Shown: piece by piece, positions 26,515 to 60,601 of the stretch
Position numbering within the stretch: the first letter of the stretch is position 1
Layout: the number at the start of each line of letters is the position of its first letter
DNA from: Desulfomicrobium sp. ZS1
GTDB taxonomy: Bacteria > Desulfobacterota > Desulfovibrionia > Desulfovibrionales > Desulfomicrobiaceae
Direction: 5' to 3'
Length of the DNA stretch: 64,000 nucleotides
Assembly (NCBI RefSeq): GCF_024204645.1
Contig: NZ_CP100351.1
Location: forward strand, 1,426,001 to 1,490,000
Translations under genes and position numbers: made by a program
The notes under the pieces: model-generated
What the model was told of the DNA's origin: nothing
Databases searched by the model: none
The model's input: the letters and a program-made list of their open reading frames with translations, nothing else

Positions 26515-26599
26515 GTAGGGGCAAAAAATTGTTGGGGCAAAAAATTTTTTGCCCCTACGTTCCGCCCCAACGCCCCTACGTCCCGCCCCAACGCCCCTA
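26515..26599. repeat. Palindrome plus tandem 21-base repeats after glpK
   Basis: GTAGGGGCAAAAAATT (26515-26530) is inverted at 26543-26558. A second arm makes a perfect 22-base palindrome at 26534-26555 (GGGGCAAAAAA then its complement). It could serve as a bidirectional terminator for glpK and the convergent cheD. Two tandem 21-base units follow (26558-26578 and 26579-26599, one mismatch), each ending in the same CGCCCCTA word as the palindrome arm. Confidence 0.8.
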
Positions 26600-26665
26600 C
26601 GGATCATTTGCGCTGCGGGGATGTATGACGGGATTTTCGTGTCTTCGAGGTGGCGGACCGCCGGA

Positions 26666-42217: not shown

Positions 42218-44248
42218 ATGAAAAACATCAAGTTGGGGATCAAGATCGGCGGAGGTTTCGGAGTTCTGATTCTTATCGCATGCGCTTTGGGTGGTTTGGC
42301 CGTGTTTAACATGAAGTCCGTCGAGGGAGATTCCATCCGGCTGGCCCGTGAGTATGTGCCTGAAGTCGAGATGGCCAATGAACTTGAACGCACGTCATTG
42401 CTGACCATGTATGCCTGGCGCGGCTATTCCTTATCAGAAGAAAGCTCTTTTTTGGATGAGGGGCGCAAACAACTGGCCGCTGTGCAACAGGCCTTGAGCA
42501 CGGCCGAAAAGCATGCGCAGACATTTCCGGATCTAGTCAAACTGAAGGAACAGCTTGTCCTGACAAAAAGTGAAGTCGCCGAATATGCCAGCTTGGCGGA
42601 TCAGACGGTTTCGCTGGTTGAAAGCATGAATGACGACCGCAAAGCCCTGGATTCGGGCGCGGCTGCCTTTATGATGAATTGCGCGGATTTTCTCGTATCC
42701 CAGAATGAAGCCATGCAAAGGGAAATCACCGAGGGGGCCACAAGCGACCGTCTCGCGGAGCGGCTGCAAAAGATCGTTCATATCAACGATGTCATTGATC
42801 TTGTCAACGACACGCGCATCAAGGTGTGGCGTGCCCAGGCCACCAGAGATCCAAAAATCATCGAGGAAGCGCTACCAAACTTTCAAAAGATGGACGAACT
42901 GTTCAACCGGATGAAAGCCATCACCCGGGTTGAAATCAATCTCAAACAAATAGAGGGCACCCGCGAGGCAGGGCAGCAATACAGGGCTGCCATGTTGAGC
43001 TTAAGTGAACATTGGAAGGCGTTGAGCGAGATCAACGTCAAGCGCACCAAATCCGGCGCGGGCGTGCTCGTTACTACCCAGAACACCGCGGAAGCCGGAC
43101 TTGAAGGCACGCAAAAGATCGCCGACGAGGCTGTCACCAATCTGAACTCGGCCTCCACTGTTATGATCGGCGGCCTCAGCGTCGGCGTCATCATCGGCAT
43201 CCTCACCGCCATTTTCCTGACCAAGGGTATCACCGGCCCGGTGCAGATGGGCGTGGATTTCGCCCGCAAGCTGGCCCAAGGCGACCTGACCGCCAAACTG
43301 GACGTGGACCAGAAGGACGAAGTCGGCATCCTGGCCCAGGCGCTGCGCGAAATGGTCGCCAAGCTGCGCGAGATCGTGACCGAGGTGCAGTCGGCCTCCG
43401 ACAACGTGGCCTCGGGTTCTGAGGAACTGAGCGCTTCGGCCGAACAGCTCTCCCAGGGCGCGACCGAGCAGGCCGCCTCTGTTGAAGAGGTATCGTCGAG
43501 CATGGAAGAGATGGGCTCCAACATCCGCCAGAACGCCGACAACGCCTCCCAGACCGAAAAGATCGCCCTCAAGGCCGCCCTTGATGCCGAAGCCGGCGGC
43601 AAGGCCGTGGTTCAGGCCGTGGGCGCCATGAAGAACATCGCCGAGAAGATCTCCATCGTCGAAGAGATAGCCCGCCAGACCAACCTCTTGGCCCTCAATG
43701 CCGCCATCGAAGCTGCCCGCGCAGGCGAACACGGCAAGGGTTTCGCAGTGGTCGCGGCGGAAGTGCGCAAACTGGCCGAACGTAGCGGCACGGCCGCAGC
43801 CGAGATCAGCGAGCTGTCCTCCTCCACCGTCAGCGTGGCCGACCAGGCCGGACAGATGCTGGTCAAGCTGGTTCCGGACATTCAGCGCACGGCAGAGCTG
43901 GTGCAGGAGATATCCGCCGCTTCCAACGAACAGAACGCCGGTGCCGAACAGATCAACAAGGCCTTGCAGCAGCTTGACCAGGTCATTCAGCAGAACGCCT
44001 CGGCTTCCGAGGAAATGGCTTCCACTTCTGAAGAACTGTCCAGCCAGGCCGAGCAGCTGCAGTCCTCCATCTCCTTCTTCCATCTGGGCGCTACAACGGC
44101 CAGAGTCACCCGTCAGGCCGCCCATCGCGGACGGCCGCAGGCTTCCCGCAAGGCGGCTCCCAAGGCCCTGGCCGCCAAGGGATCAGCCAGCGGCCTGGCC
44201 CTTGATATGGGACGCGACGATGAAGATGATGAATTCGAACGTTTCTAA
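42218..44248 (+). CDS. Transmembrane methyl-accepting chemotaxis protein
   Basis: This 676-residue receptor has TM1 (about 8-30), a periplasmic helical sensor of about 280 residues (HBM-like in size), TM2 (about 315-335), HAMP (336-390) and a cytoplasmic signalling domain. The tip has the invariant [20 protein letters not shown], followed by [15 protein letters not shown]. The C-terminus is an Ala/Lys-rich linker ending in acidic residues and EFERF, which fits the aromatic-x-x-aromatic CheR-tether pattern (compare NWETF). AAGGAGG precedes the ATG. It is the first gene of the main che operon, 19 bases ahead of cheW. No ligand can be assigned. Confidence 0.93.
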
Positions 44249-44267: not shown

Positions 44268-44753
44268 ATGAGTGACAACACTACCCTGCAGTACCTGACC
44301 TTCGGTCTTGGCGAGGAGGTCTTTGCCCTGGAAACGGGTTCCGTGCGCGAGGTCATCGAACTCGTGTCCGTGACCCGCATCCCCAAGACGCCGGCCTACA
44401 TGCGCGGGGTCATCAATCTGCGCGGCCATGCCGTGCCCGTGGTCGACCTGCGCATCAAGTTCGACATGCCAAAGACCCAGGATACTGTGAACACATGCAT
44501 CATAATAGTAGATGTGGAAGTTGAAGGCGAAAACTGCTATATGGGCGCGATAGTTGACTCGGTCCGCGAAGTGTTCGAAATGACCAGCGACCAGATCAAC
44601 CCGCCGCCGCGCATGGGTACGTCCATCAGGGCGGACTTCATCCGTGGCATGGGCAAGCAGAACGAGGAGTTCATCATGATCCTCGACATCGGCAGAGTCT
44701 TCTCCCCTGAAGAACTGCAGGTTCTGCGCAGCACTGAAGAAATGGAAGCGTAA
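44268..44753 (+). CDS. cheW: Chemotaxis coupling protein CheW
   Basis: This 161-residue protein links receptors to CheA. It has LQYLTFGLGEEVFALETGSV, VREVIELVSVTRIPKTPAY, the conserved GVINLRGHAVPVVDLR and a closing FIRGMGKQNEEFIMILDI with VFSPEE. The length is standard. It follows the receptor gene by 19 bases; a strong hairpin separates it from the next gene. Confidence 0.95.
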   Translation: MSDNTTLQYLTFGLGEEVFALETGSVREVIELVSVTRIPKTPAYMRGVINLRGHAVPVVDLRIKFDMPKTQDTVNTCIIIVDVEVEGENCYMGAIVDSVREVFEMTSDQINPPPRMGTSIRADFIRGMGKQNEEFIMILDIGRVFSPEELQVLRSTEEMEA

Positions 44754-44794: not shown

Positions 44795-44815
44795 ATCATG
44801 AACAAGGACCGGTCC

Positions 44816-46759
44816 ATGCCCCACGAAAAAGCGCATCTTCTCCAAGAACTGGGTTCTGTGATGGAGGAATGCGCCAGTAGCCTACCCATCCTTTTGCCCC
44901 GCCTTGCCGGTGTCATCAAAGACAGAGAAGAGGAATTTCTCGGACTCGGGTCCACGATTTTCGGCATCAATTCAAAAGCCAACACGTTTTCCGCCACGGC
45001 TTCGGCCATGGCCTCTTCCGTCGGAGAAGGCGCGCTGCACGCGGCCATCGGCGAACTGCAGACCCGGGCCGACGAGGCAAAAGCCGTATTTTCCTCCGTT
45101 TCTTCCACGGAGCAATTGCAAGGCATGTCCGAGGTGCTGGGCCTTATTCGCAGCCTGGACCAGGCCATGGCCCAATTTTTCAATATGGTGCAGACCTTGA
45201 AAGTGCTCGAAATCACCACCCGCATTGAGAGCGCCCGCCTGGGCAGCGCCGGTGCCGGGTTCACCACCCTGGCCGACGATGTCAGGGCGCTGGGCACGAT
45301 CATCGACGAGCACACGGAAAAAATTCGCGAGCACTCGAACCGGCTCATGAACCAGGTGACCACTGCCAGTGAGCGCAGTAAAATGCAGATCGCTTCGCAG
45401 AAACGCATTGTCGAGGACATGTTCACGGAGCTCTTTGCCGGCATTTCCGAACTCGAGTCCATGCGTACTCATTCGGCCGGTCTGGTTCAGGATCTGGCCC
45501 ACGGGTCGCGGCAGGTGACCGAAAGCATGGGACAGGTCATCGCCTCGGTGCAATTTCACGACATCACCCGCCAGCAGGTCGAACACGTCGAGGAAATTCT
45601 GGAGCAGGCCGTTCGGGAAATCAGCACCCGGGGTGAGGACGATGCCGGCCTTGGAGCCTGGGTGCGGGACGTTCTCACGCTCCAGGCTCCGCAACTGCGT
45701 CAGGCGCAGGAAATGTTTTCGGGGGCCGTGGAAGAGCTTATCGGCAATTTGATCTCCATCGGGCACGGCATCGAGGACCTGCACGGCAAGATCACCGCCG
45801 TGGCCTATGCGGACAGGAAAGGCGGCGTTTCCATTCTCGATGCCATTCGGCATCACATCGGCGATGTCACGAACGCCATGCGGACCACCAGCGGGGACAT
45901 TTCGGAGACATCCAAAACCATGTCGCACATGGCGGAAACCATCTCCACGGTCAGCACCTTCGTGCACGGCATCGAGGACATCGGGGCCGAAATCGAACTC
46001 ATCGCGCTGAACGCCCGGGTCAAAGCCGCCCACACCGGAGACCAGGGCCGCACCCTCGGGGTCATCGCCATGGAAATCCAGAATCTTTCCGTGGACGCCC
46101 GCGCCCGCACCGGAACGGTGGCTGAAATCCTGAACCGCATTTCCTCCGTGGCCGAACGCCTCTCCACCCTGGCCCGTGACTCGGACGTGTCCGAAATGGT
46201 GGGCGGAATCCAGGGCCGATTTGAAACTGTGCTCGACCATCTGGCAGGTCTTGACGCCGAACTCGGAACAAACGTTGCGCACCTCTCGGAGCTCAGCACC
46301 GGGCTTGTGTCACAAATCAACGCCTTGACATCTTCCATCCATTTCCACGATTTGGTATCAGGCCAACTGTTGAACTTGGAAAAAGAAATCACGGTCTTGA
46401 AAGACACGTTCGCCCCCTTCTCGGCAGAGCTCGACACGGCCAGACAGCCCGAGAAATTGCGGGAGCAGCTCTCCAGGTACACCATGGACAGCGAACGGCT
46501 GGTTCACTTGTCCGTGCTCGGGCATCATGGGGACGCCCATGACAATGGCGAAGTCGATCTGTTCGGCGATAATGACGTCGAACTTTTCGGCGATGACGAT
46601 GTCGAACTCTTTACTAATGACAACGTGGAACTTTTCGACGACGACAATGTCGAGCTTTTTGCAGACGCCAATGTCGAACTTTTCGACGGGCAGCCGAGCG
46701 CGCCAAAAAAGAAGGCCGAACCCGAAGAGGATCTCGGCGACAATGTGGAACTTTTCTAA
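44816..46759 (+). CDS. Soluble receptor-like protein with two tip-like segments, CheZ-like motifs and a VELF-repeat tail
   Basis: This 647-residue protein has no membrane segment and is mostly helical. Two stretches resemble chemoreceptor signalling tips: about 128-160 (LKVLEITTRIESARLGSAGA then FTTLADDVRALG) and about 388-425 (IELIALNARVKAAHTGDQ then LGVIAMEIQNLS). Each is followed by a related helix, QFHDITRQQVEHVEEIL at 246 and HFHDLVSGQLLNLEKEI at 509. These helices recall the FQDLTGQ active-site helix of CheZ; D249 and Q253 have the CheZ D-x3-Q spacing, while the second copy does not. The tail (579-647) has seven VELF-type pentapeptides. AAGGA, 8 bases before 44816, decides the start over an ATG 6 codons upstream. 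It lies between cheW and STAS/cheY. Receptor, CheY phosphatase or scaffold are all possible. Confidence 0.8.
   Translation: MPHEKAHLLQELGSVMEECASSLPILLPRLAGVIKDREEEFLGLGSTIFGINSKANTFSATASAMASSVGEGALHAAIGELQTRADEAKAVFSSVSSTEQLQGMSEVLGLIRSLDQAMAQFFNMVQTLKVLEITTRIESARLGSAGAGFTTLADDVRALGTIIDEHTEKIREHSNRLMNQVTTASERSKMQIASQKRIVEDMFTELFAGISELESMRTHSAGLVQDLAHGSRQVTESMGQVIASVQFHDITRQQVEHVEEILEQAVREISTRGEDDAGLGAWVRDVLTLQAPQLRQAQEMFSGAVEELIGNLISIGHGIEDLHGKITAVAYADRKGGVSILDAIRHHIGDVTNAMRTTSGDISETSKTMSHMAETISTVSTFVHGIEDIGAEIELIALNARVKAAHTGDQGRTLGVIAMEIQNLSVDARARTGTVAEILNRISSVAERLSTLARDSDVSEMVGGIQGRFETVLDHLAGLDAELGTNVAHLSELSTGLVSQINALTSSIHFHDLVSGQLLNLEKEITVLKDTFAPFSAELDTARQPEKLREQLSRYTMDSERLVHLSVLGHHGDAHDNGEVDLFGDNDVELFGDDDVELFTNDNVELFDDDNVELFADANVELFDGQPSAPKKKAEPEEDLGDNVELF
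46550..46756 (+). repeat. Seven VELF pentapeptide repeats, six at 8-residue spacing
   Basis: Within the preceding gene, pentapeptides start at residues 579 (EVDLF), 587 and 595 (DVELF), 603, 611 and 619 (NVELF), exactly 24 bases apart. After a lysine-rich linker a last NVELF forms the C-terminal end (643-647). Acidic Asp-rich triplets separate the copies. The DNA units are similar but not identical. Confidence 0.9.
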
Positions 46760-46774
46760 AATCAGGAGCCTTTC

Positions 46775-47092
46775 ATGTTTGCATGCACCGTCCAGGGCCC
46801 CCCGGAACACCCGGTCATAAAACTTTCCGGCAATCTTACCCTCGATCATTCCAGGGAGATCCACGCCGAGCTGCTGGCCCGTTTGCCCCAGGCTGGCGCC
46901 ATTACCCTTGACTTGGCTGATTCGGAAAAATCGGACCTCTCTTTTGTGCAGATCCTTTGCTCCCTCTTGAAGGATGAGGATAAAAGAATCAGCTTCGTGA
47001 ACCTGCCTACTCACCTGCTCGAAAATGCGGCGAGCCTGGGGGCGGACGGGCTCATCAAAGAAATATCGAGCCGTACAGAGGAAAATGTATGA
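46775..47092 (+). CDS. STAS-domain protein of the chemotaxis operon
   Basis: This 105-residue STAS fold resembles anti-sigma factor antagonists. It has VIKLSGNLTLDHSREIHAEL, then ITLDLADSEKSDLSFVQILC, where S56 is near the phosphorylated Ser of SpoIIAA. RISFVNLP and LGADGLIKEI complete the family pattern. No matching kinase of the SpoIIAB type is seen. Such proteins occur next to cheY in some chemotaxis operons, where their job is unknown. AGGAG precedes it and it overlaps cheY by 4 bases. Confidence 0.85.
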   Translation: MFACTVQGPPEHPVIKLSGNLTLDHSREIHAELLARLPQAGAITLDLADSEKSDLSFVQILCSLLKDEDKRISFVNLPTHLLENAASLGADGLIKEISSRTEENV

Positions 47093-47451
47093 GTAAAACC
47101 ATAATGACGGTTGATGACTCGGCCAGCGTCCGTCAGATGGTCAGCCTGACCCTCAAAGACGCCGGCTATGCGGTCATCGAGGCCTGCGACGGCAAGGACG
47201 CCCTGGCCAAACTCTCCGGGCCGGTGGACATGATCGTGACCGACCTCAATATGCCCAACATGAATGGCATCGAACTTATCCGCGCCGTGCGCGCCACGCC
47301 TCAGTATAAATTCGTGCCCATTATCATGCTGACCACGGAATCCCAGGCTTCCACCAAAGAGGAAGGCAAGGCGGCCGGGGCCACTGGTTGGATCGTCAAA
47401 CCGTTCAAGCCGGATCAGCTCCTGGCAGTGGCCAAGAAACTGCTGCGCTAA
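47089..47451 (+). CDS. cheY: Chemotaxis response regulator CheY
   Basis: This 120-residue single receiver has the acidic pair in MTVDDSASVRQM, acceptor D52 in MIVTDLNMPNMNG, Thr in IIMLTTES and Lys in WIVKPFKPDQL. Phosphorylated by CheA, it would act on the flagellar motor or another output. It lies directly before cheA, starting inside the STAS stop codon. Confidence 0.94.
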   Translation: MSKTIMTVDDSASVRQMVSLTLKDAGYAVIEACDGKDALAKLSGPVDMIVTDLNMPNMNGIELIRAVRATPQYKFVPIIMLTTESQASTKEEGKAAGATGWIVKPFKPDQLLAVAKKLLR

Positions 47452-47468
47452 CCCCCCTCGGAGCAAAA

Positions 47469-49529
47469 ATGTCCAGAGAAGAACTGAACCGTCAGGCGTT
47501 TAAAGAAGAAGCCCTGGAACTTTTGGGCGAACTGGAAACCTCCCTTCTTGAACTTGAGGAAGACCCGGCAAACGACGATGTCATCAACCGGGTTTTCCGG
47601 GCCATGCACACCATCAAGGGCTCGGGGGCCATGTTCGGCTTTGAGGATATCGCTTCGTTCACCCACGAGGTGGAGACTGTCTTTGATCTGGCGCGCAATG
47701 GCCAGATTCTGGTATCCAAAGAACTTCTGGACCTGACGCTTCTGGCCAGGGACCATATCCTGTCCATGCTCGAAGGCGAGGAGCAGGGCCTGGGCGCGCG
47801 GGCCGGCGAGGTCATACGGGGGCTCAAAGCGCTGACTCCAAGCCGCACGCAGACTGAACAGGGCCCTGCGGTCAAGGCGTCTGCGCCGACCTGCGCCACG
47901 GATTCGTCCATGAACACCTGGCGCATCCGCTTCGCCCCGCCCAAGAATTTGTTCATGAGCGGGACAAACCCTGCGTCCCTCCTGGAAGAACTGTGCGAGA
48001 TGGGTGAACACCACATCATCATGCACATCAAGGATATCCCCGCCCTGCCCCAACTCAATCCCGAAGACTGTCTGGTCTGGTGGGACATCATCCTGACATC
48101 TACGGCCAGCGAAGACGATATCCGCGACGTGTTCATCTTCGTGGAAGAGGACAGCGACCTGACCATCCAGATGGTCGGCAGCTGTCAGGGCATCGACGAG
48201 GAATCCTACAAGCTCATCGGCCAGATCCTGGTCGAGAAGAACGACATCACCAAAGACGCCCTGGAGCGCATTTTGCTTGAGCGCAAGCCCATCGGACAGC
48301 TTTTGTCCGAGGCGGGGCTGGTCAGCGTAAGCCAGGTCGAGGCGGCATTGGTCGAGCAGCAGGAGGTCAAACGCCTGCGCCAGACGGCCAGCGCCGAGCC
48401 GCAGACGTCGAGCATCCGGGTCCCGGCGCAGAAGCTGGATTTTCTGGTCGATCTGGTCGGCGAACTGGTCACGGCCCAGGCGCGGCTGACCCAATTCGCC
48501 AGTGAGCAGAATGATGCAAGGCTGCAGGCCATCTCCGAAGAAATCGAGCGACTCTCCGATGAGCTGCGCGACAACACCCTCGGCATTCGCATGCTGCCCA
48601 TCGGCTCGACTTTTAGCCGTTTCAAGCGCCTGGTCCGCGACCTCTCGCAGGAGCTCGGCAAACGCATCGTGCTCGAAACCCACGGTGAAGACACTGAACT
48701 CGACAAAACCGTCATCGAGCGTCTGAACGATCCGCTGGTTCACCTGCTGCGCAACAGCATCGATCACGGCATCGAGAGTCCCGAGAAGCGTATGGCCCAG
48801 GGCAAGAATCCCGAAGGACGGATCGAACTCTCGGCCGAGCATTCCGGCGGCGAGGTGCTCATCCGCATCATCGATGACGGCGCGGGCATAGATCCCGAGC
48901 GCATCCGGGCCAAAGCCGTGGAAAAAGGGATTATTGCTCCGGACTCGATAATTTCGGACAAAGACACCCTCATGCTCATCTTCATGGCCGGCTTCTCCAC
49001 CGCCGAAAAGGTCACCAACGTTTCGGGGCGCGGCGTGGGCATGGACGTGGTCAAGCGTAACATCGACGCCCTGCGCGGGCGCATCTCCCTGGAGAGCGTC
49101 CCCGGCCAGGGCACCACCATCTCAGTGCGCATCCCGCTGACGCTGGCCATCATCGACGGCCTGCAGGTCCAGGTCGAAAACAGCTATTTCATCATGCCCC
49201 TCTCCGCCGTGGAGGAATGCGTGGAACTCATCCGCAAGGACAAGGACCGCGCCGATCTCATCAATCTGCGCGGCCAGATGGTGCCGTACGTCAGCCTGCG
49301 CGCCGGTTTCGAAATTCCGGGCCAGACTCCGGAGATCGAACAGGTCGTGGTCTGCAACTCCCAAGGACGGCGGGTCGGCATCGTCGTGGACCGGGTCATC
49401 GGCGAGCACCAGACCGTCATCAAGAGCCTGGGCAAGGTCTACCAGGACGTGCGCGGCATCTCCGGCGCGACCATCAAGGGCGATGGAAGCATGGCGCTTA
49501 TCCTTGATATCGCAGCTCTCGTGGCCTGA
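47469..49529 (+). CDS. cheA: Chemotaxis histidine kinase CheA
   Basis: This 686-residue kinase has an Hpt domain with phospho-acceptor H47 (FRAMHTIKGSGAMFGF) and a P2-like segment (about 148-240). Next come two tandem IGQxLxExxx motifs (about 249-298: IGQILVEKNDIT, IGQLLSEAGLVS) that resemble the MshEN/GspE N-terminal repeat. The dimerisation domain starts about 315 (LDFLVDLVGELVTAQARL). The ATPase has N429 in HLLRNSIDHG, DDGAG (469-473) and GRGVGMDVV (520-528). The C-terminus is a CheW-like P5 domain. The start at 47469 lies 17 bases after the cheY stop; 27 earlier codons overlap cheY in another frame and are rejected. Confidence 0.94.
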   Translation: MSREELNRQAFKEEALELLGELETSLLELEEDPANDDVINRVFRAMHTIKGSGAMFGFEDIASFTHEVETVFDLARNGQILVSKELLDLTLLARDHILSMLEGEEQGLGARAGEVIRGLKALTPSRTQTEQGPAVKASAPTCATDSSMNTWRIRFAPPKNLFMSGTNPASLLEELCEMGEHHIIMHIKDIPALPQLNPEDCLVWWDIILTSTASEDDIRDVFIFVEEDSDLTIQMVGSCQGIDEESYKLIGQILVEKNDITKDALERILLERKPIGQLLSEAGLVSVSQVEAALVEQQEVKRLRQTASAEPQTSSIRVPAQKLDFLVDLVGELVTAQARLTQFASEQNDARLQAISEEIERLSDELRDNTLGIRMLPIGSTFSRFKRLVRDLSQELGKRIVLETHGEDTELDKTVIERLNDPLVHLLRNSIDHGIESPEKRMAQGKNPEGRIELSAEHSGGEVLIRIIDDGAGIDPERIRAKAVEKGIIAPDSIISDKDTLMLIFMAGFSTAEKVTNVSGRGVGMDVVKRNIDALRGRISLESVPGQGTTISVRIPLTLAIIDGLQVQVENSYFIMPLSAVEECVELIRKDKDRADLINLRGQMVPYVSLRAGFEIPGQTPEIEQVVVCNSQGRRVGIVVDRVIGEHQTVIKSLGKVYQDVRGISGATIKGDGSMALILDIAALVA

Positions 49530-49532
49530 TCC

Positions 49533-50378
49533 ATGTACGACGCAAACGGCCAGACCGCGCCGCTCATGACCGACAAGGAACTCAAGCAGTTCAGCGAGTT
49601 CATCTATTCTGAGCTTGGCATCAAGATCACCCAGACCAAGAAGACCATGCTGCAGGCCCGTCTGCAGCGCCGTCTGCGCACGCTGAACATGAAGTCCTAC
49701 GGGCAGTATCTTGAATACCTGCAGTCCTTGAAGGGGCTGGAGGTCGAATTGCCGCAGATGGTCGACGCGGTGACCACCAACACCACCAGCTTTTTCCGCG
49801 AACCGAAGCATTTCGAATACCTGTCCCAGATCATTCTGCCGCAGTGGCAAAAAAAGCATCCCGGCCGGACTTTTGCCGTCTGGAACGCGGGCTGCTCATC
49901 CGGGGAGGAGCCCTACACCACGGCCATGACCCTTATGGACTACCACCAGCGGGTCAGTCCCCTGCGCTTCACCATCGTGGCCACGGACATCTCCACCGAC
50001 ATTCTCAAAAAAGCCGCCCGCGCCGTGTACGAAGATGAAAAAATCGGGACCATTCCGGTGGAGTTCAGGCGTAAATTTTTGCTGCGCAGCAAGGACAAGA
50101 GCAGGCGGATGGTCCGCATCATTCCGGAGCTGCGCGACACGGTCAGTTTCAGGCGCCTCAATTTCATGGATGACTTTCAGTTCCGCGAGAAAATGGACCT
50201 GATTTTCTGCCGCAACGTCATGATCTATTTCGATAAAAAGACCCAGAATGAGCTTGTCCAGAAATTCTGCAACCACCTCGAACCCGGCGGATATCTGTTC
50301 ATCGGCCATTCCGAAAGCCTGGCCGGTACGGACCTGCCGCTAAAACAGCTGGCTCCGGCCACCTACATGCGCATCTAA
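49533..50378 (+). CDS. cheR: Chemoreceptor glutamate methyltransferase CheR
   Basis: This 281-residue enzyme uses S-adenosylmethionine to methylate receptor glutamates. An N-terminal helical domain (about 12-80) precedes TNTTSFFREPKHFEYL. The SAM loop VWNAGCSSGEEPYTTAM, FTIVATDIS, LIFCRNVMIYFDKKTQ and LEPGGYLFIGHSESL are all intact. It begins 3 bases after the cheA stop and closes the operon. Its beta-subdomain would be the expected partner for C-terminal receptor tethers such as EFERF in the receptor and possibly the VELF repeats. Confidence 0.95.
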   Translation: MYDANGQTAPLMTDKELKQFSEFIYSELGIKITQTKKTMLQARLQRRLRTLNMKSYGQYLEYLQSLKGLEVELPQMVDAVTTNTTSFFREPKHFEYLSQIILPQWQKKHPGRTFAVWNAGCSSGEEPYTTAMTLMDYHQRVSPLRFTIVATDISTDILKKAARAVYEDEKIGTIPVEFRRKFLLRSKDKSRRMVRIIPELRDTVSFRRLNFMDDFQFREKMDLIFCRNVMIYFDKKTQNELVQKFCNHLEPGGYLFIGHSESLAGTDLPLKQLAPATYMRI

Positions 50379-57238: not shown

Positions 57239-60200
57239 TCAAGAGGCCTGGGCGGTGGGTTGAACCGCTTTGTCGGCCCCTTCACCGTCCATGACCTCGG
57301 CAAAAATACAGGCAAACTGATTGCGCGCCGGCCTGAAAGCCGTGACTTGAAAACGTTTGCCGACCTGCGACGAATATTGTTCGAATTTCGAGGACTTACC
57401 GGTCAGAGCCACCTCGCCGAAAGCCTCGATCCAGAATTTTTCCGTGTCAGGCATGATTTCAAGAACGGTCTTGCCTAAAACCTGCTCGGCTTTCAGGCCA
57501 GTCATCCTCTCAAAAGCGGGATTGACGGCCAGAAAACGGTAATCCACGGGCGTGCCTTTTTCGTCGCAGATGATCTCGTGCAACGAAAATCCGTTGAACA
57601 TTTCCTGAAACAGGACCTGAAAGTCCTGCTCCGCCTGGCGTTTTTCAGTTATGTCCTCAAAAGTCGCATAGACCTGCGAAGGCATGCTCTCGCCGGGTTT
57701 GAACAAAGGCATAGCGGTTATGGAGAGCCAGATGTGCGTGTTCTTCCCGGGATGAAAGACCCCTCTCACCACCGGTCCCTCCTTGTGCCCGGTCCGCAAG
57801 GCGATCATGGCCGGGTGGTGCATTCCGGTCACTGTGGAGCCATCCTCACGGATCATCTTCCAGCGCGGGTCCATGGATGTGTTGCCCAGTATCTGGTCCA
57901 GGGTAAGTCCCAGAATGCGCCCAGCAGCGGGGTTGGCGGAGACGATGGCACCGTCTGCCGCATGGTAGACCACGCCAAGGGGGAGAGTTTCAAAGAGGGC
58001 GCGGAATTCCTCCTCACTTGTGCACAGAGCCTCCTCGCCGAGTTTTATGCGGGTAATGTCCACAAAGGAGACCAGGGTGCCGGAAAAAACCTTTGGCCCC
58101 ACGGAGTACGGCACCACCCGCATCAGATACCAGCGGCCATCCTTGGCGCGAATCTCGTGTTCGGCCATTTTCCCGCGTTTGTGTACGTTCTCGATGGCCC
58201 AGACCGGATCGATATTTTCGAGCTGGTGAGAGATATCCGCCAAGCTCCGCCCCACGTCCGTGTCCAGCACCTTGAATACATCGGCGACTTTGGGTGAAAA
58301 GCGCCTGATATCCATGTTTTCATCGAGCAGAAGTTGCCCGATCTGGCTGACGTTCAAGAGGTTGTCCACGTCGTTGTGCAGCTCGCTCAACTCCACGATC
58401 TTGGACTGGTATTCCGAATTGACCGAATACAGCTCTTCATTGGTGGATTGCAGTTCCTCGTTGGTCGATTGCAGCTCCTCGTTGCTGGCGAGGAGTTCCT
58501 CGTTGGTGGCCTGCAATTCCTCGTTGGCGGTCTCCAGTTCTTCTACCGTAGCTTGCAGATTCTCACGGGTGAACTGCAGTTCCTGCTCCAGATCGGTGAT
58601 GCGCTGCTCGGCTTCCAGAGACAGGTCATAGGCCTGAATGGCCTGTGTCTTGTCCAGAATGTCGGGCCGTGCGACCTCTTCCAGAAACACGGCTACCAGC
58701 GGTTCCTGTCCTTTTTTCTGGGGCAGGGGTAGAATCCGTAAATCCACCACTTTGAGCGCATCCATATCGCGCAGCTTGATGTTGGAGAAGCGAAGCGCCT
58801 CCTGCTTGCGGAAAACCTTCTGGATGCCGGTGGAAAGAGGGATGGCCAGATCCTTGGCCGCCATCTTGGAGATGTCCCGCGAGAGCTTGCCCGAGGGAAG
58901 CTTGAAATACCCAGTGGTGTCCCCGAAGACGTGCAGCACTTCCATCTGCTCGTTGACGACCACGGCCAGAGGAAAATTGTCCGCGCTCAAGGCTTCCAGG
59001 AATCGCTCCAGAATGCGTTCGTCATTGACGTGCGGATCCCGGCGCATCACCGGAAAACGGCTGCCCAGGTCGCGGTAGGTCGAGCCCGGAGCCTGGGGCA
59101 GTTCATGAGAATCGAGGCTGTGCTTGAACCGTCCCTTGGTGCGGTAAATCTTGCTTTTGTGATCGAGACTCTCGAAACAGTCACCCATCTCACCGATGGT
59201 TTCGCTGGTGCCGAGCAGCAAAACGCCCTGAGCATTGAGCGAAAAATTGAAAAACTCCAAAACCTTGCGCTGCAGGATCGGCTGCAGGTAGATAAGCAGG
59301 TTGCGACAGGAGATGAGGTCGATATTGGTGAAGGGAGGGTCTTTTATCAGGTTGTGCGGGGCAAAGACGACCATCTCGCGGATATTGCGCGATATCTGAT
59401 AGCTGTCCTGCTTGCGGTAGAAATACTTGCTCAGCAGCTCCTGCGGCACGTCGGCGGCGATGCTGTCGGGGTAGACCCCGTTGGCCGCGAAGAGGACAGC
59501 GTCGCGGTCGATGTCCGTGGCGAAAATTTTCAGGTCGCGGTTGATTCCGGACTGAAGCATGTATTCCTTGGCCAGGATGGCCAGGGTGTAGGCCTCCTCA
59601 CCCGTGGAGCAACCGGCGATCCAGAACCGGCTCTCCTTTCCGGCGGAGCGGTCCAGGATTTCCGGCAGCCAGCTTTCCTTCAAAAGTTCAAACACTTCCC
59701 GGTCGCGGAAGAATCTGGTCACGCCGATCAGGAATTCGCGAAACAGCGTGCCCGCCTCGCCGGGATAATTCTGCATGTAGGCCACATAGTCCCGAATCTC
59801 ATCGATGCGGTTTATGGACATGCGGCGTTCGATTCGCCGGGTCACGGTGCTGGGCTTGTAGTAGGTGAAATCCGCCTTGAACTTGTCGCGCAGGATGGCA
59901 AAAATGCGGGTCAGAGCATCCTCGTCGCTGATAACGGTCTCGGAGCGCTCGGCTTTTATGACGAAGGGGTGTTTGGCGTAGGAAAGCAATCGTTCAGGCA
60001 TTTCCTCAGGCGGCAGGATGAAGTCCACCAGGCCCGTGGAAAGGGAGGCCCGGGGCATGCTGTCGAATTTAGCCGTGCTTTCGCTCTGGACCATGACCAT
60101 GCCGCCGAATTCCTTGATGGCCCGCACGCCGCGCATGCCGTCACTGCCTGAGCCTGAAAGAATGACGGCCACCGCCTTGTCCCCCTGGTCCTCGGCCAGG

Positions 60201-60601
60201 GATCGCAAAAAAATATCGATGGGCAGGTTGATGGTGCCTTTGACGTGCTCCTGGTCGTTTAACAGCAGCTTGCCGTGAAATATGCTCAGGTTCTTCTTGG
60301 GCGGAATCAGATAGACGTTGTCCGGCAGGACCGGCATGCCCTCCTCGGCCCGAAGCACTTTCATCTTGGTTTTTTTGGACAGGATCTCGACCATAAGGCT
60401 TTTGTAGTCCGGAGACAGGTGCTGGATAACGATGAAGGCCATGCCGCTGTCCGGGGCCATGCCCGAGAAAAAAGCTTCGATGGCTTCCAGGCCTCCGGCT
60501 GAAGCTCCCACCGCCACATACAGGGATGGTTTAATCGGCGTCTGCGCGTTGGAGGCGGGGGCTGCAGGCTTCTTTTGTTTGGGGGAATACTTTTTTGTCA
60601 T
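57239..60601 (-). CDS. CheB-CheR-PAS fusion protein
   Basis: This 1120-residue protein combines a methylesterase and a methyltransferase. The CheB-like domain (about 25-215) has S34 in VAVGASAGGLEAI, H61 in IQHLSPDY and D154 in SGSGSDGMRG, so the catalytic set is complete, but the regulatory receiver of normal CheB is absent. The CheR domain (about 225-490) has WIAGCSTGEEAYTLAIL and LISCRNLLIYLQ. A coiled coil built of NEEL repeats follows (ELETANEELQATNEELLAS), then about three PAS domains. The protein ends after the last PAS, without histidine kinase or ATPase domain. Such fusions are known and usually end in a kinase. The substrates are not established. GAGG precedes the ATG. Confidence 0.9.
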   Translation of the reverse strand: MTKKYSPKQKKPAAPASNAQTPIKPSLYVAVGASAGGLEAIEAFFSGMAPDSGMAFIVIQHLSPDYKSLMVEILSKKTKMKVLRAEEGMPVLPDNVYLIPPKKNLSIFHGKLLLNDQEHVKGTINLPIDIFLRSLAEDQGDKAVAVILSGSGSDGMRGVRAIKEFGGMVMVQSESTAKFDSMPRASLSTGLVDFILPPEEMPERLLSYAKHPFVIKAERSETVISDEDALTRIFAILRDKFKADFTYYKPSTVTRRIERRMSINRIDEIRDYVAYMQNYPGEAGTLFREFLIGVTRFFRDREVFELLKESWLPEILDRSAGKESRFWIAGCSTGEEAYTLAILAKEYMLQSGINRDLKIFATDIDRDAVLFAANGVYPDSIAADVPQELLSKYFYRKQDSYQISRNIREMVVFAPHNLIKDPPFTNIDLISCRNLLIYLQPILQRKVLEFFNFSLNAQGVLLLGTSETIGEMGDCFESLDHKSKIYRTKGRFKHSLDSHELPQAPGSTYRDLGSRFPVMRRDPHVNDERILERFLEALSADNFPLAVVVNEQMEVLHVFGDTTGYFKLPSGKLSRDISKMAAKDLAIPLSTGIQKVFRKQEALRFSNIKLRDMDALKVVDLRILPLPQKKGQEPLVAVFLEEVARPDILDKTQAIQAYDLSLEAEQRITDLEQELQFTRENLQATVEELETANEELQATNEELLASNEELQSTNEELQSTNEELYSVNSEYQSKIVELSELHNDVDNLLNVSQIGQLLLDENMDIRRFSPKVADVFKVLDTDVGRSLADISHQLENIDPVWAIENVHKRGKMAEHEIRAKDGRWYLMRVVPYSVGPKVFSGTLVSFVDITRIKLGEEALCTSEEEFRALFETLPLGVVYHAADGAIVSANPAAGRILGLTLDQILGNTSMDPRWKMIREDGSTVTGMHHPAMIALRTGHKEGPVVRGVFHPGKNTHIWLSITAMPLFKPGESMPSQVYATFEDITEKRQAEQDFQVLFQEMFNGFSLHEIICDEKGTPVDYRFLAVNPAFERMTGLKAEQVLGKTVLEIMPDTEKFWIEAFGEVALTGKSSKFEQYSSQVGKRFQVTAFRPARNQFACIFAEVMDGEGADKAVQPTAQAS

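What the first reader, a model, noticed from the sequence alone, without database searches (positions are those of the whole stretch)
46550..46759. Multivalent VELF pentapeptide tail resembling the CheR-binding receptor tether
Seen: six pentapeptides ([E/D/N]V[E/D]LF) at an exact 8-residue period and a seventh NVELF as the extreme C-terminus, separated by Asp-rich residues. Known: enterobacterial receptors end in NWETF or NWESF, which recruits CheR, and the consensus is roughly x-aromatic-x-x-aromatic. NVELF keeps N, E and F of NWETF, though Trp is replaced by Val. Inference: the tail could be an array of docking peptides for CheR, CheB or another partner, giving high local avidity. A repeated, internal form of the tether in a soluble receptor-like protein is not something I know to be described. 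The transmembrane receptor in the same operon ends in EFERF, closer to the standard pattern.
Basis: partly seen in the sequence, partly recalled or inferred. Interest (0 to 1): 0.82.

Follow-up and report, generated by a model that had tools for sequence, protein, structure and literature searches.

The report
Receptor-like CheZ relative with docking tail
A soluble chemotaxis protein of sulfate-reducing bacteria looks like a receptor that carries the active-site signature of the CheY-dephosphorylating enzyme CheZ, and it ends in a strictly conserved docking peptide that two genera have copied up to eight times; what the peptide binds is still unknown, with CheY the likeliest partner.

Summary
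In detail: six [EDN]V[DE]LF motifs at an exact 8-residue period plus NVELF at the C-terminus of a 653-aa MCP-like protein. Homologues change the picture. All 79 read from the host phylum end in [NG][VI][ED][LF]F. The internal array is a later expansion: 16 of 71 have three or more copies, all in two genera. In 101 genomes of the order, the DN[VIM]E[LF]F-stop pattern falls on this protein in 36 of 37 hits. The protein is an internally duplicated, single-chain, receptor-like coiled coil. Its first half keeps Qx[HQ]DxxRQxxxH in 71 of 71, in register with the CheZ phosphatase site (DXXXQ); 0 of 31 control MCPs has it. Neighbours within 8 kb are CheA (71 of 79), CheY (70) and CheR (48 at 200 bits, 58 at 40 bits). 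NVELF fails the published CheR-pentapeptide rule, and five of six array clusters in the second genus show no CheR hit within 8 kb. Best reading: a CheZ-like CheY-P phosphatase on a receptor-like scaffold, tethered to CheY by the tail and multivalent where the array exists. Phosphatase activity and CheY binding are inferred, not shown; a fold test of the tail was uninformative.

The parts
44798..46759 (+). 653-aa soluble receptor-like protein with a CheZ-like site, called CZL here; start codon as listed
   Evidence: ORF; Pfam MCPsignal 67 bits, two stretches; 44-member alignment
45197..45292 (+). First MCP-tip-like segment, residues 134-165 (TRIESARLG...GF...LA..V)
   Evidence: many positions invariant or nearly so in 44 homologues
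45551..45586 (+). CheZ-like active-site motif, residues 252-263 QFHDITRQQVEH (D255, Q259 align on E. coli CheZ D143, Q147)
   Evidence: Q252, D255, R258, Q259 and H263 invariant in 71 of 71; best of 145,518 profile diagonals against CheZ; same register in hhalign
45971..46090 (+). Second MCP-tip-like segment, residues 392-431 (ALNARVKAAHTGDQG...)
   Evidence: Pfam MCPsignal best stretch 366-502; N405 invariant in 44
46331..46366 (+). Degenerate second-half counterpart of the CheZ-like motif, residues 512-523 (SSIHFHDLVSGQ)
   Evidence: the halves align, hhalign Prob 97, E 1.1e-10, 223 columns
46475..46498 (+). RYTMDSER motif near the end of the folded part, residues 560-567
   Evidence: Y561, T562, M563 and R567 invariant in 44
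46550..46684 (+). Six internal [EDN]V[DE]LF motifs, period 24 nt / 8 residues, Asp-rich spacers
   Evidence: disordered in the AF2 model
46736..46756 (+). Terminal GDNVELF, the family-wide C-terminal peptide
   Evidence: [NG][VI][ED][LF]F at the C-terminus of 79 of 79 homologues
46775..47092 (+). STAS-domain protein between CZL and CheY
   Evidence: Pfam STAS_2 58.7 bits; a STAS hit near 35 of 79
47089..47451 (+). CheY, single receiver domain; proposed partner and substrate
   Evidence: Pfam Response_reg; within 8 kb of CZL at 40 of 44 and 30 of 35 loci
47469..49529 (+). CheA (start inferred)
   Evidence: within 8 kb of CZL at 44 of 44 and 27 of 35
49533..50378 (+). CheR; the E. coli pentapeptide-pocket glycines are replaced
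42218..44248 (+). MCP with a HAMP domain, ending DDEFERF, which fits the aromatic xZxxZ rule (start inferred)
44268..44753 (+). CheW
   Evidence: Pfam CheW 128 bits

Best explanation
The protein is a soluble, single-chain pseudo-dimer built from two receptor-type helical halves. Its MCP-like tips would let it sit in or near the chemosensory array. Its first half carries a CheZ-type site (D255 and Q259) that would speed dephosphorylation of the CheY encoded beside it. The flexible acidic tail ends in a peptide, mostly [D/G]DN[VI]ELF, that works as a tether, most likely for CheY, as the C-terminal helix of CheZ does. In the window's genus and one other genus the peptide has been copied into the tail, so one molecule could hold several CheY at once and raise their local concentration at the active site. 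Shown: the duplication, the motif match and its invariance, the terminal conservation, the fixed core of the array units, and the gene neighbourhood. Inferred: phosphatase activity, CheY as partner of the peptide, docking to the array, and multivalency.
For: (1) Q, D, R, Q and H of Qx[HQ]DxxRQxxxH are invariant in 71 of 71 homologues. Against a 13-sequence CheZ profile this stretch is the top of 145,518 ungapped 16-column comparisons, raw score 33.3, Z 8.3, with catalytic D on D and Q on Q. Null: 100 column-shuffled CheZ profiles reach at most raw 24.3 and Z 7.8 (mean Z 5.2); reversed CheZ gives raw 16.7, Z 5.2. A profile of 31 MCPs reaches raw 19.5, Z 5.6, and 0 of 31 MCPs have the motif. (2) Distant members read ALQFQDITRQ, which has the published AXXFQ + DXXXQ pair of CheZ (PMC7750401, passages). 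(3) hhalign picks the same register, though weakly. (4) CheY lies within 8 kb at 40 of 44 loci of the order and 30 of 35 elsewhere in the phylum; at L171, L173 and L192 CheY is present with no CheA hit in the stretch read (L173 has only 2.0 kb upstream and 6.3 kb downstream). (5) No hit to E. coli CheZ lies within 8 kb of any of the 79 genes; the genome's own CheZ is at C1:2398394 and the three listed of its four CheX hits lie outside both CZL clusters. (6) Like CheZ, the protein is helical and ends in a linker and a short acidic-hydrophobic peptide, 20-129 residues from YTMxxER to the end (L155 lacks that motif and was cut at 90); true CheZ of the same order ends in forms such as DVDDLLAQLGL. 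(7) 16 of 71 homologues have three or more copies; in 75 internal units F is kept in 75, L in 72, V/I in 73 and E/D in 73, with mixed synonymous codons.
Against: No binding or activity data. The Pfam CheZ score of the window protein is far below cut-off (13.5 against 30.7 bits); only 12 of 44 members hit CheZ at E <= 0.1, and unrelated coiled-coil families score as well or better. hhalign to CheZ has probability 13 only. The best MCP control match (Z 5.6) also falls on the CheZ active-site stretch, at another receptor segment (NQAGQMLSKIV), and 9 of 31 MCPs have a D[QA]xGQ string, so part of the likeness is general to receptors; the shuffled null comes near in Z (7.8 against 8.3) though not in raw score. 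The peptide is shorter than the CheZ C-terminal helix and not alignable to it with confidence. A fold of the natural read-through tail-STAS-CheY of L043 left the tail at pLDDT about 24, so no docking was seen. Foldseek puts receptors, not CheZ, at the top. CheA is as regular a neighbour as CheY (71 against 70 of 79). Clusters L108-L110 of one genus and the loci L169 and L172 lack a nearby CheY yet keep the peptide.
Confidence: 0.43

Rival explanations
1. The tail recruits CheA (for example its CheY-binding region), CheW or another array or polar protein, so the peptide is a localisation or assembly tag rather than a CheY tether.
For: CheA lies within 8 kb at 44 of 44 loci of the order and 27 of 35 elsewhere. 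E. coli CheZ is itself brought to the poles by binding CheA (PMC7750401, start of abstract).
Against: Three loci (L171, L173, L192) keep gene, peptide and CheY with no CheA hit in the stretch read. No peptide of this form is known to me for CheA (recall).
Confidence: 0.2
2. The tail is a multivalent CheR (or CheB) tether.
For: Same layout as receptor tethers: disordered linker then a C-terminal acidic pentapeptide ending in F. CheR lies within 8 kb at 48 of 79 loci (200 bits or more) or 58 of 79 (40 bits or more), a CheB hit (E. coli query, 100 bits or more) at 36 of 79. R187 and R197 of the pocket are kept in 34 of 34.
Against: Fails the aromatic-x-x-aromatic rule in 79 of 79. Pocket G188 and G190 are absent in 34 of 34 CheRs of these clusters, Q182 in 34 of 34, G194 in 30 of 34. 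Five of six array-bearing clusters of the second genus have no CheR hit within 8 kb, the sixth a weak one. The pattern DN[VIM]E[LF]F-stop is this protein in 36 of 37 hits and no receptor in 101 genomes.
Confidence: 0.14
3. The CheZ-like site is catalytically dead and the protein is a passive CheY sink or scaffold that buffers CheY-P through its peptides.
For: The second half has lost the motif; His and Arg flank the D and Q, unlike canonical FQDLTGQ.
Against: D and Q are invariant in 71 of 71, hard to explain without catalysis.
Confidence: 0.13
4. The internal array is neutral acidic low-complexity growth by replication slippage; only the terminal peptide matters.
For: Copy number varies from 1 to 8 between relatives and 48 of 71 have one. 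DNA units are partly similar.
Against: Hydrophobic core residues are nearly fixed while spacers and synonymous codons vary; spacings of 6 to 10 residues differ between species with the core kept.
Confidence: 0.1

Closest known systems
CheZ (PF04344), CheY-P phosphatase of Proteobacteria
   Same: FxDxTxQ-type site in register with D143/Q147; helical body, linker, short acidic-hydrophobic C-terminal peptide; gene near cheY
   Different: About three times longer, receptor-like, internally duplicated into one chain with one intact site; below the Pfam cut-off; C-terminal peptide NVELF instead of the DVDDLLxxLG[FL] type; peptide multiplied in two genera
Soluble chemoreceptors (PF00015 MCP signalling domain)
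   Same: MCPsignal domain over cut-off; tip-like sequences; top Foldseek hits are receptors; encoded in a che operon
   Different: No sensor domain found by Pfam; two tip-like segments in one chain; CheZ-like motif absent from 31 control MCPs; C-terminal peptide not of the CheR type
CheR/CheB-binding receptor pentapeptide (NWETF, EFEKF)
   Same: Extreme C-terminus after a disordered linker, acidic, last residue F
   Different: Val or Ile instead of an aromatic at position 2; internal tandem copies; this exact C-terminus was not found on receptors in 101 genomes

Membership tests
CheZ (PF04344) | Pfam gathering score | tested here: not met
   13.5 bits against 30.7 for the window protein; 12 of 44 members hit at E <= 0.1
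CheZ (PF04344) | DXXXQ phosphatase motif | tested here: met
   D255 and Q259; invariant in 71 of 71, aligned on CheZ D143/Q147
CheZ (PF04344) | AXXFQ motif directly before DXXXQ | tested here: inconclusive
   Window has SVQFH; some distant members have ALQFQ
CheZ (PF04344) | C-terminal CheY-binding helix of the DVDDLLxxLG[FL] type | tested here: not met
   All 79 end in [NG][VI][ED][LF]F; CheZ tails
CheZ (PF04344) | Speeds dephosphorylation of CheY-P | not testable with these tools
   needs an assay
Methyl-accepting chemotaxis protein | MCP signalling domain PF00015 | tested here: met
   67 bits against 34.6; matched in 44 of 44 members at E <= 0.1
Methyl-accepting chemotaxis protein | Sensor domain or transmembrane segments, and methylation sites | tested here: inconclusive
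   No Pfam sensor domain in the window protein; transmembrane segments and methylation sites not computed
CheR-binding C-terminal pentapeptide | C-terminal xZxxZ, Z aromatic | tested here: not met
   Position 2 is V or I in 79 of 79
CheR-binding C-terminal pentapeptide | Extreme C-terminus after an unstructured linker | tested here: met
   pLDDT under 50 over 576-653; linker plus peptide 20-129 residues
CheR-binding C-terminal pentapeptide | Cognate CheR keeps the E. coli pocket residues | tested here: not met
   G188, G190 and Q182 in 0 of 34, G194 in 4 of 34; R187 and R197 in 34 of 34

The most novel reading that the evidence does not exclude
A receptor-shaped CheY phosphatase built from a fused receptor dimer, sitting in the array, whose tail is a row of up to eight CheY docking peptides that captures and buffers CheY-P; the number of peptides, changing between species, sets the strength or the switch-like character of signal termination.
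Probability: 0.26. Interest if true: 0.82.

Novelty: new variant of a known kind. Interest (0 to 1): 0.62.

Why it matters
If right, the che systems of 34 of 297 genomes sampled across this phylum include an undescribed receptor-like CheZ relative that could end their signal. A published Geobacter study found no cheZ and inferred a CheZ-independent mechanism (PMC2577667, passages); this family has a member in Geomesophilobacter of the Geobacterales (L049), so it is a concrete candidate to test there. It also hints that CheZ and receptors share an origin, and the natural copy-number series of one docking peptide (1 to 8) is a ready experiment on multivalency in bacterial signalling.

Tried and rejected
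CheR tether: weakened as described, kept as a rival. STAS as partner: a hit lies near only 35 of 79 genes, and at L102, L112 and L044 there is no room for it before CheY while the peptide stays. Sliding-clamp or PDZ-type use of an xLF C-terminus: considered from memory only; no evidence, and internal copies have no free carboxylate. Pfam CheZ hits as proof: rejected, since unrelated coiled-coil families score alike. The AF2 model of the window protein (13 rows, pLDDT 78.5, pTM 0.52) was not used for site geometry: it draws residues 104-276 as one helix and I had no coordinates. VIA-align put tweety-homologue (TTYH) membrane proteins, ClyA-type pore formers and other long-helix proteins at the top, read as a common helical arrangement; CheZ was not among the 50 rows shown by either fold search, which shows nothing either way. 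Alignment A1 misplaced rows and was dropped; alignment A4 misplaced the STAS rows and was replaced by A5. In one search the printed codon triplets of the six units were out of frame; codon counts come. Neighbour counts used different cut-offs; the uniform recount is the one quoted (CheR rose from 47 to 48, or 58 with weak hits; L184 has CheY only inside a 516-aa frame and counts as a miss). Literature: the terms NVELF, DNVELF, GDNVELF and DNIELF gave 2 papers, both with NVELF and off subject by their titles (listing only); searches listed no paper that by title or abstract start treats this protein or a multi-copy tail.

Full report
WHAT IS THERE. The 653-aa ORF at 44798-46759 lies in a che operon: MCP (42218-44248, ending EFERF), CheW, this protein (CZL below), a STAS protein, CheY, CheA, CheR. 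Its tail has six [EDN]V[DE]LF motifs 24 nt apart (46550-46684) and NVELF as the last five residues. Shuffling the tail 100,000 times never gave more than 2 motifs against 7 observed.

THE TERMINAL PEPTIDE IS THE CONSERVED ELEMENT. I collected 44 non-redundant homologues in the host's order set (2 of 46 loci dropped as duplicates; the set includes named records such as Geomesophilobacter L049 of the Geobacterales) and 35 from other genomes of the phylum (one more match there, the N-terminal fragment G165:C120, was not fetched, and L189 is a C-terminal fragment). All 79 end in [NG][VI][ED][LF]F. The degenerate DNA pattern for DN[VIM]E[LF]F followed by TRR has 37 matches in 101 genomes of the order; by position 36 are the end of this gene, and one (L077) ends no ORF of 40 aa or more. 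A control pattern (read backwards) gave 0 in every row. So in these genomes this C-terminus is private to this protein and not shared with receptors.

THE ARRAY IS A LATER EXPANSION. Three or more copies occur in 16 of 71 homologues counted, all in two genera (ten loci of the window's genus, six of genus g7 in family f4); 55 of 71 have one or two. Within the array the spacing is mostly 8 in the window's genus (6-7 in two loci) and 8-10 in the other. With a looser pattern (17 genes, 75 internal units) the core is F 75, L 72, V 65 or I 8, E 64 or D 9, with several synonymous codons at each place, while spacers vary within an Asp-rich composition. The Asn shared with NWETF is present in 31 of 75. 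That looks like selection on a short hydrophobic peptide rather than mere slippage.

THE BODY. Pfam sees an MCP signalling domain in 44 of 44. The two halves of the protein are homologous (hhalign probability 97, E 1.1e-10, 223 columns), so it is a single-chain pseudo-dimer with a tip-like segment in each half. At residues 252-263 all 71 aligned members keep Q, D, R, Q and H of Qx[HQ]DxxRQxxxH. I compared the family profile with a CheZ profile (E. coli plus 12 sequences of the order). The best of 145,518 ungapped 16-column comparisons is EIVSSLQFHDITRQQV on EIMTALSFQDLTGQRI (raw 33.3, Z 8.3), with the catalytic Asp and Gln of CheZ on D255 and Q259. Controls: 100 column-shuffled CheZ profiles reach at most raw 24.3 and Z 7.8 (mean Z 5.2); reversed CheZ raw 16.7, Z 5.2. 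A profile of 31 MCPs reaches raw 19.5, Z 5.6, against CheZ and raw 21.4, Z 5.9, against reversed CheZ. The MCP match also falls on the CheZ active-site stretch, at another receptor segment (NQAGQMLSKIV), and 9 of 31 MCPs have a D[QA]xGQ string, so some likeness is general to receptors; but 0 of 31 MCPs have the CZL motif. Some distant members read ALQFQDITRQ, which has both published CheZ motifs, AXXFQ and DXXXQ (PMC7750401, passages). In the second half the motif is degenerate. The whole-protein CheZ score is below threshold and hhalign is weak, so I do not file the protein as CheZ; I say it carries a CheZ-like site.

NEIGHBOURHOOD (uniform recount, same strand, within 8 kb). CheY at 40 of 44 and 30 of 35 loci; CheA at 44 and 27; CheR at 34 and 14 with 200 bits or more, 37 and 21 with 40 bits or more; STAS at 26 and 9; no E. 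coli-CheZ hit at any. At L171, L173 and L192 CheY is there with no CheA hit (L173 lies on a short contig). L169 and L172 have no che hit; L199 reaches its contig end, and other misses (L086, L043, L094) are also near contig ends. The genome's own CheZ, and the three listed of its four CheX hits, are elsewhere.

WHICH PARTNER? For CheR, the rule in PMC7390727 (passages) asks for aromatics at positions 2 and 5; position 2 is V or I in 79 of 79. CheRs of these clusters lack Q182, G188 and G190 (0 of 34) and mostly G194 (4 of 34), keeping R187 and R197 (34 of 34; residue list from PMC2577667, passages). Because the operon MCP carries EFERF, this CheR may still bind aromatic peptides by other residues. 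For CheY, the case rests on the CheZ-like site, the neighbourhood and the CheZ-like layout (helical body, linker, short acidic-hydrophobic end). CheA is as regular a neighbour. Direct tests were poor: the tail is disordered in the AF2 model, and a natural read-through tail-STAS-CheY chain left it at pLDDT about 24, with STAS itself badly folded.

CONCLUSION. Chemistry, binding and multivalency are inference. PMC3944678 (passages) shows that one of three cheA loci of Desulfovibrio vulgaris matters for motility; whether that locus holds this gene was not established.

Noticed in passing
G000:C1:1837117-1838946 (L002, L083): A second copy of the protein (73% identical) with its own MCP-CheW-STAS-CheY-CheA-CheR cluster and a shorter tail (DVNLF, DVELF, NVELF).
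   Followed up: partly
window 46475-46498: RYTMxxER just before the tail is as conserved as the active-site motif (Y, T, M, R invariant in 44) and has no assigned role.
   Followed up: no
window 47388-49529, residues 301-327 of that frame (CheA): Sub-threshold match of CheA to the MshE-related cyclic di-GMP-binding motif (NF053729, 27.9 bits against 38), hinting at c-di-GMP input to this kinase.
   Followed up: no
window 58440-58540: 21-bp repeats inside the large minus-strand ORF 57239-60601 (CheB/CheR/PAS-like by eye), coding a NEELQST-type coiled coil.
   Followed up: no
window 26551-26601: Short 21-bp tandem repeat, 2.4 copies.
   Followed up: no
L169, L172 (one genus): Copies of the gene with no che hit in the stretch read, still ending LGTN[IV]ELF.
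   Followed up: partly
L154, L158: Unusually long tails (101 and 129 residues after YTMxxER); that of L154 has DILFD/DVLFD segments, perhaps another form of the array.
   Followed up: no
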